Below are positions 55,783 through 56,016 of a stretch of DNA of 64,000 nt, in pieces; the stretch's first letter is position 1, and every line of letters starts with the position of its first letter. Position numbers and translations under genes: made by a program. The notes beneath the pieces are model-generated. The model did no database searches. It saw nothing but the letters and a program-made list of their open reading frames with translations, and had not been told where the DNA came from. The DNA lies in contig NZ_FOHB01000003.1 in NCBI RefSeq assembly GCF_900111375.1, positions 310,001 through 374,000 of the forward strand, in the 5' to 3' direction. The DNA is from Pedococcus cremeus (lineage in GTDB: Bacteria; Actinomycetota; Actinomycetes; Actinomycetales; Dermatophilaceae).

Positions 55783-55877
55783 ATACTCGAAGCCGTTGCG
55801 CAGCAACCTCTTTCGCGACTGCTGAGCGATCCTCAACACGAATTCGATTTGCTGTCAAGGGTTCTCGCTGGCACAGT

Positions 55878-55954
55878 TTCTCGTCGACTTGACCTGACCT
55901 GACACGTAACCGACGAGAAGACGAAGGAGAGGCGCCCCGTGGAGACGGGGCGCC
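55878..55954 (+). promoter_or_regulatory. Structured leader of the BCCT transporter gene
   Basis: Two potential hairpins precede the gene. The first is TTCTCGTCG (55878) with CGACGAGAA (55911). The second is a perfect 10-bp stem, GGCGCCCCGT / ACGGGGCGCC (55931-55954), with a GGAG loop. The second lies 9 nt before the GTG and could hide or replace the ribosome-binding site. Confidence 0.55.
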
Positions 55955-56016
55955 GATTACTGCGTGACGACACACCTGACGAAGACAGGACCCACGGGTC
56001 CCACCGACCTCACTGA
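55939..56016 (+). other. Possible 25-codon leader ORF overlapping the BCCT start
   Basis: The GTG at 55939 has AAGGAGAGG about 7 nt upstream, a better site than the BCCT GTG has. The frame runs 25 codons, contains the rare leucine codon TTA at 55957, and stops 50 nt inside the transporter gene in another frame. No homology is recognised. Confidence 0.35.

What the first reader, a model, noticed from the sequence alone, without database searches (positions are those of the whole stretch)
55800..56016. Structured, possibly regulatory leader in front of the BCCT osmolyte transporter
The 218-bp gap has an AT-richer stretch, a 9-bp inverted repeat, and a perfect 10-bp hairpin with GGAG in its loop ending 9 nt before the GTG. 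The GTG has no usable Shine-Dalgarno of its own. A better ribosome site (AAGGAGAGG) feeds a 25-codon frame containing a TTA codon that overlaps the transporter start. This looks like translational control by a leader peptide, a riboswitch or an osmotic RNA switch.
Basis: inference. Interest (0 to 1): 0.55.

Follow-up and report, generated by a model that had tools for sequence, protein, structure and literature searches.

The report
Hairpin-bridged ribosome site before betaine transporter
In front of a betaine-type transporter gene, an RNA hairpin sits between the ribosome landing sequence and the start codon and seems to fold away an otherwise too long gap; the arrangement is kept in many related bacteria although the hairpin's letters change.

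Summary
The BetP-like BCCT gene (GTG 55964) does have a Shine-Dalgarno: AAGGAG 55924-55929, 34 nt upstream. The perfect 10-bp hairpin (55931-55954) lies between it and the GTG; folded, it leaves 10 nt. Of 49 related genes in the same family, 43 show SD-hairpin-start by one code. The linear gap varies (22-44 nt) with hairpin length (r = 0.89), while the 3' spacer stays near 8 nt. Stems covary (15 double-changed cells against 5.2 in shuffles, 0/500). Similar arrangements occur at homologous genes in other families, Jiangella and Halopolyspora among them, but many homologues lack it. In the own genome no second convincing site was seen. This works like the split ribosome binding site of phage T4 genes 25 and 38 (PMC3014915, passages). 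An overlapping leader frame exists in only 4 of 55 leaders, and no riboswitch family matched. A conserved promoter-like pattern explains the AT-rich stretch and puts most of the left arm of the 9-bp repeat outside the predicted transcript. Nothing was measured; whether the hairpin regulates is open.

The parts
55849..55877 (+). Predicted promoter TTGCTG-N17-CACAGT; expected transcription start about 55884
   Evidence: TTGnnn-N16..19-[CT]AnnnT in the 110 nt before the SD in 39 of 55 hairpin leaders against 1 of 110 control windows; the narrower TTGnnn-N17/18-CAnn[GC]T in 38 of 55 (no control run for it); lowest GC of the gap. No start was mapped; the consensus scan found no sigma-70 site.
55902..55919 (+). 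Conserved leader box ACACGTAACCGACGAGAA (consensus tgAyACGyAACtg...), role unknown
   Evidence: ACG[CT][AG]AC in 28 of 55 leaders against 1 of 110 control windows (alignment)
55924..55929 (+). Shine-Dalgarno AAGGAG of the transporter
   Evidence: SD of at least 5 nt before the hairpin in 55 of 63 loci examined
55931..55954 (+). Intervening hairpin GGCGCCCCGT-GGAG-ACGGGGCGCC, looped out between SD and start codon
   Evidence: covariation; pairing probability 1.0 in the predicted transcript
55955..55963 (+). 9-nt 3' spacer between hairpin and start codon
   Evidence: 3' spacer 7-10 nt in 48 of 55 leaders
55964..57763 (+). BCCT transporter, 599 aa, GTG start, BetP-like
   Evidence: PF02028 E 9.8e-180; TIGR00842 above its cut-off; BetP chains E 1e-163
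55939..56016 (+).
   Evidence: Start lies inside the hairpin; no such start in L002; overlapping frames in 4 of 55 leaders
55878..55919 (+).
   Evidence: predicted start 55884; left arm not conserved in L002

Best explanation
The leader carries a split (accommodated) ribosome binding site. Transcription starts near 55884 (inferred). The 30S anti-SD pairs with AAGGAG 55924-55929. The GC hairpin 55931-55954 stays folded and is looped out, which cuts the SD-to-GTG distance from 34 nt to 10 nt, so the GTG at 55964 can sit in the P site. What is selected is the presence and place of the hairpin, not its letters. Shown: anatomy, conservation of the architecture in the family, covariation, near-constant collapsed spacing, no second convincing site seen in the own genome. 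Inferred: that the ribosome uses it this way. Unknown: whether it also regulates.
For: Of 49 related genes in the same family, 42 and, after one locus offset was corrected, 43 have SD-hairpin-start; of the 42, one also has a direct SD (L045, at an internal codon). In the 55 leaders the linear gap is 22-44 nt and hairpins are 14-34 nt; lengths correlate at 0.89 with slope 1.06, variance is 36.8 for linear and 8.0 for collapsed spacing, and the 3' spacer is 7-10 nt in 48 of 55 (hairpin taken as the most stable one without limits on its flanks). Covariation: 86.2% of cells paired, 15 double-change cells against 5.2 +/- 1.8 shuffled (0/500), slid controls at most 6. On the tree of 65 rows the trait needs 6 changes against 18.4 shuffled (0/500), and 20 of 24 rows of the main clade have it (L035 labelled by eye). 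Own-genome scans: rank 1 of 279 genes; model R1 35.4 bits here, next 23.6 at a terminator-like palindrome. The same arrangement is described for T4 genes 38 (22 to 5 nt) and 25 (27 to 11 nt) (PMC3014915 section 29, passages).
Against: No transcript, probing or reporter data. In three of 49 family genes (L007, L009, L011) nothing of the kind was seen, and many more distant homologues do without it: 13 of the 40 loci have it (0 of 10 in f37, 0 of 5 in f16), and of 71 named loci three are convincing. In g18 and g39 members hairpins are often weak and other folds compete: mean pairing probability exceeds 0.8 in 35 of 55, the SD is unpaired above 0.5 in 32 of 55, and the start codon is mostly paired in the predictions (median unpaired 0.21; 0.09 here). 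Weak hairpins individually reach chance levels (up to 60 of 300 shuffles). Median collapsed spacing (9) is longer than that of strong direct SDs on this contig (6, from 33 of 279 genes). Group membership was drawn up, and the 29 rows were picked for having a hairpin.
Confidence: 0.75

Rival explanations
1. The hairpin is a conditional element (thermometer, osmotic or ligand switch): its folding state changes with conditions, and with it the SD spacing and transporter synthesis.
For: The gene is a BetP-like osmolyte transporter. Some members have marginal hairpins of about -7 kcal/mol with competing folds. The predicted fold of the own leader closes an outer stem over the start codon, whole-fold z -3.69.
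Against: Stability ranges from -4.4 to -23.2 kcal/mol with no common set point. The own hairpin would hardly melt under growth conditions (inference). Loops are not conserved. Pairing between leader and start region is not above shuffles (mean z -0.57 over 55). No Rfam match.
Confidence: 0.1
2. The hairpin acts mainly as a brake: it lowers translation of a membrane protein, or shapes mRNA decay, and the fixed place is a by-product.
For: Collapsed spacing is a little longer than the local norm; a membrane transporter may need low synthesis (general knowledge).
Against: A brake does not predict a near-constant collapsed spacing or a strong SD kept upstream with none downstream.
Confidence: 0.1
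3. The palindrome is a DNA operator for a repressor rather than an RNA structure.
For: It is a perfect palindrome close to the predicted promoter.
Against: Sequence and arm length differ widely among relatives, G-U pairs occur and both-side changes keep pairing (the hairpin code allowed G-U, so their number is not a clean test). The position is fixed to SD and start codon, not to the promoter-like pattern, which ends 36-79 nt before the SD in the family leaders that have it (second candidates at 13 and 31 nt in L064 and L065 set aside).
Confidence: 0.04
4. A leader peptide starting at GTG 55939 couples to or attenuates the transporter.
For: SD-like AAGGAGAGG stands before GTG 55939, and the frame overlaps the transporter start. 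Overlapping frames exist also in L067, L193 and L075.
Against: Only 4 of 55 leaders have such a frame, with unrelated peptides; none in L002; the start codon is buried in the hairpin.
Confidence: 0.01

Closest known systems
Split (accommodated) ribosome binding sites of phage T4 genes 25 and 38 (PMC3014915, passages of section 29; Nivinskas 1999 and Malys & Nivinskas 2009 seen only as references there)
   Same: Strong SD too far from the start codon, hairpin between them, collapsed spacing of 5-11 nt; gene 25's is conserved within close phages and absent from distant ones.
   Different: T4 cases are phage genes, and gene 25 lies at an intercistronic junction; here it is a chromosomal transporter with its own predicted promoter, kept across genera and also found at homologues in other families, with strongly diverged hairpins. 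Function shown for T4, not here.
E. coli thrS split ribosome binding site (PMC3936740, passages)
   Same: A hairpin is accommodated on the 30S without unfolding.
   Different: In thrS, as I recall, the hairpin lies upstream of the SD and is an autoregulatory target; here it lies between SD and start.
RNA thermometers, riboswitches, leader-peptide attenuators (general knowledge)
   Same: Structured 5' leader at the ribosome binding site.
   Different: The stem leaves the SD outside; no conserved aptamer, melting point or peptide was found.

Membership tests
Split (accommodated) RBS with intervening hairpin | SD at a linear distance too long for direct use | tested here: met
   34 nt here; 22-44 nt in 55 leaders
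Split (accommodated) RBS with intervening hairpin | No other usable SD next to the start codon | tested here: met
   No direct SD for L001 and for 41 of the 42 hairpin genes of the group (exception L045, an internal codon)
Split (accommodated) RBS with intervening hairpin | Stable hairpin between SD and start that brings the spacing to a functional value | tested here: met
   -22.9 kcal/mol, collapsed 10 nt; median 9 nt over 55
Split (accommodated) RBS with intervening hairpin | Base pairing conserved by evolution | tested here: met
   with the caveat that the 29 rows were picked for having the hairpin
Split (accommodated) RBS with intervening hairpin | Destabilising the hairpin lowers translation | not testable with these tools
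   Needs reporter assays
Known riboswitch or RNA thermometer family (Rfam 15) | Match at or above the gathering score | tested here: not met
   0 matches in the window; best sub-threshold match 16.5 bits against 75
Leader-peptide control | Conserved short reading frame | tested here: not met
   Overlapping frame in 4 of 55 leaders, peptides unrelated; none in L002
BCCT transporter | Pfam BCCT domain over its full length | tested here: met
   PF02028, residues 51-539, profile 1-484 of 485
Glycine betaine BCCT equivalog NF047988 | Score above the curated cut-off | tested here: not met
   559.9 bits against 650; substrate not settled

The most novel reading that the evidence does not exclude
The hairpin is a physicochemical feedback gate: RNA helix stability depends on intracellular ions and compatible solutes (recalled: betaine destabilises GC-rich RNA helices, potassium stabilises them), so the looped-out spacer couples transporter synthesis to the cell's osmolyte state without any protein or aptamer, and each lineage keeps pairing while letters drift.
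Probability: 0.05. Interest if true: 0.9.

Novelty: new member of a known kind. Interest (0 to 1): 0.5.

Why it matters
In my searches of one open-access library (seven papers opened in all, passages only) hairpins looped out between SD and start codon turned up only as phage T4 cases. A chromosomal gene that has kept this arrangement across genera, with hairpins of 14-34 nt, would be a natural experiment on how much structure the 30S can accommodate in the spacer. It also shows a gene that tools using linear SD spacing would score as lacking a ribosome site.

Tried and rejected
Rfam at gathering and at permissive thresholds: nothing. Sigma-70 and terminator consensus scan: nothing. The fold of the whole gap pairs the SD with sequence upstream of the predicted promoter, so it was set aside for folds from the predicted start. 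The outer stem over the start codon in the own leader is not above shuffles elsewhere. The leader box as an MtrA operator (motif from PMC5650626 and PMC13189361, passages): strict tandem half-sites in 1 of 55 leaders against 4 of 219 control windows, not supported. Leaderless translation from the GTG: judged by eye only; no TAnnnT stands at a constant place before the starts and the upstream SD is kept. Other model R1 hits: the own-genome search scored 150 of 12,029 first-look candidates and listed 7 matches at E <= 10; the six others read are one terminator-like palindrome (L217) and five that look like chance matches. In 58 genomes, 13 of the 20 other loci that read at the right place are palindromes resembling bidirectional terminators (by eye); L228 and L236 were misplaced there and reread (no split RBS seen). 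R1 is not sensitive: it misses hairpin genomes such as G018 at E <= 0.5. No paper describing this leader was seen, but only 20 of 44 and 15 of 295 matching papers were listed.

Caveats: one search had a frame error for loci open far upstream; it was redone as and its numbers are not used. L010 was missed because of a wrong offset and recovered. The 63 loci are the 49 family genes plus 14 others (L075, L118, L144, L181-L185, L192-L196, L203) chosen because an earlier call showed, or I saw by eye, the hairpin; L096 and L208-L210 (near-duplicates or sister rows) were left out. Without a hit there: L007, L009, L011, L035, L058, L061, L182, L203. By eye L035 has a bulged stem, L058 and L182 a hairpin after an SD the code does not accept, L061 a stem at a collapsed spacing of about 17; none is in the counts. 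L203 has a hit at a start that one search's limit left out, and is doubtful. In the paper searches PMC3014915, PMC3936740, PMC1805508, PMC9409239, PMC5650626, PMC13189361 and PMC8334368 were seen as passages; all others as listings.

Full report
What is there. Between era (54816-55745) and a BetP-like BCCT gene (GTG 55964) lie 218 nt (protein). The decisive reading is the order: AAGGAG 55924-55929, one base, a 10-bp hairpin 55931-55954, nine bases, GTG. The SD is 34 nt from the GTG on the strand and 10 nt once the hairpin is folded.

Relatives in the same family. A protein search of 186 genomes gave 67 places at E <= 1e-200 in 66 genomes. With one code for all 67 (SD of at least 5 nt; hairpin beginning from 2 nt before to 6 nt after the SD end; collapsed spacing 4-14; at most -4 kcal/mol), 46 have a hit. 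I then set apart 49 genes (12 genera plus the first copy of G027): 42 of 49 have it, 43 after one locus offset was corrected. Without it by code are L007, L009, L011, L035, L058 and L061; by eye L035 and L058 have the arrangement with a bulge or a non-canonical SD, and L061 has a stem at a longer spacing. Of the 18 other places four have hits: two are weak beside a direct SD (L069, L070), one lies at an internal codon (L080), one is convincing (L075). The grouping followed the result; a tree made later agrees with it: the main clade has 24 rows, 20 with the hairpin (L035 labelled by eye), the rest L007, L009, L011 and an Agrococcus gene.

Spacing. In the 55 leaders the linear SD-start distance is 22-44 nt and the hairpin 14-34 nt. 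Taking the most stable hairpin without limits on its flanks, the correlation of hairpin length with linear distance is 0.89 (slope 1.06), with collapsed distance 0.10; variances are 36.8 (linear) and 8.0 (collapsed, range 6-23); the 3' spacer is 7-10 nt in 48 of 55. The first selection step does limit the collapsed range, so the correlation and the narrow 3' spacer are the better evidence. Strong direct SDs on this contig (33 of 279 genes) have a median spacing of 6, the collapsed leaders 9.

Covariation. On a plain MAFFT alignment of 29 chosen leaders the stem has 86.2% paired cells, 6 of 8 pairs with a both-side change and 15 such cells; shuffles give 78.6%, 3.4 and 5.2 (0, 11 and 0 of 500 reach the observed values), further pair types are not above shuffles (105 of 500), and slid controls give at most 6 cells. 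RNAalifold on its own predicts only 4 pairs, 3 of them with both-side changes. Rows were picked for having a hairpin, so the paired percentage is inflated. Against dinucleotide shuffles of each SD-start segment, the own hairpin is reached in 0 of 300, weak ones in up to 60 of 300; the median p over 42 is 0.02.

Folds from the predicted start. The stem forms with mean probability above 0.8 in 35 of 55 leaders, and is 1.0 here; the SD is unpaired above 0.5 in 32 of 55 (0.60 here); the start codon is mostly paired in the predictions, median 0.21 unpaired and 0.09 here. The pairing partner of the start region is not conserved beyond shuffles. These are thermodynamic predictions without ribosomes.

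Farther away. On the tree the trait needs 6 changes against 18.4 for shuffled labels. Common origin with losses and repeated origin are both possible; the deep branches are unsure.

Own genome. Among 279 genes called by a simple rule on 364 kb of contig C9, this gene ranks first; 13 genes have some hairpin of at most -6 without a direct SD, many of them at internal codons. A covariance model finds this site at 35.4 bits; of six weaker matches the best, 23.6 bits, is a terminator-like palindrome and the others look like chance. The search scored 150 of 12,029 first-look candidates, so a diverged second site could be missed.

Promoter. A TTGnnn-N16..19-[CT]AnnnT pattern lies in the 110 nt before the SD in 39 of 55 leaders against 1 of 110 control windows; 38 of 55 fit the narrower TTGnnn-N17/18-CAnn[GC]T. 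Here it is TTGCTG-N17-CACAGT, 55849-55877, which predicts a start near 55884 and an 80-nt leader. That explains the AT-richer stretch and leaves only about 3 nt of the left arm of the 9-bp repeat in the RNA. A second box, ACG[CT][AG]AC, is in 28 of 55 leaders (1 of 110 controls), in 25 of the 28 at 10-22 nt before the SD; its role is unknown.

Leader frame. An out-of-frame start codon 3-13 nt after the SD, with a frame that overlaps the transporter start, occurs in 4 of 55 leaders (L001, L067, L193, L075); the peptides are unrelated.

Mechanism and rank. The data fit a split ribosome binding site as described for T4 genes 38 and 25 (PMC3014915 section 29, passages). I claim that it works like them; membership lacks the functional test. 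Leader peptide and riboswitch are not supported; a conditional switch is possible but unproven, since the stabilities span -4.4 to -23.2 kcal/mol. My paper searches in an open-access library showed no cellular case of this exact order; most hits were seen only as listings and closed journals were not searched.

Noticed in passing
window 55902-55919; leaders listed: Conserved box tgAyACGyAACtg... just before the SD (28 of 55 leaders against 1 of 110 control windows), also seen by eye before a hairpin-free homologue (L013). Start region not complementary to the leader above shuffles; strict MtrA repeat not enriched.
   Followed up: partly
L004 near 1468-1500: The segment between hairpin and start reads GGATCACCT, like the 3' end of 16S rRNA (recalled); kept only in part in neighbours.
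   Followed up: no
L223, L224, L226, L230, L233, L237; G000:C16:126592-126630 (L217): GC palindromes of the form GAAGGGGCGGC...GCCGCCCCTTC, resembling bidirectional terminators, score with the leader model and could be mistaken for SD-hairpin sites.
   Followed up: partly
G000:C9:254673-257333 (from L093): Second-ranked gene with a hairpin (-14.1 kcal/mol) between an SD-like GGGAG and an ATG; may be a second case or chance.
   Followed up: no
f37 loci L186-L190, L211-L215: Seven of these 10 homologues share a short direct site AAGGTGCC just before the start instead of the hairpin (read by eye).
   Followed up: no
   Followed up: no
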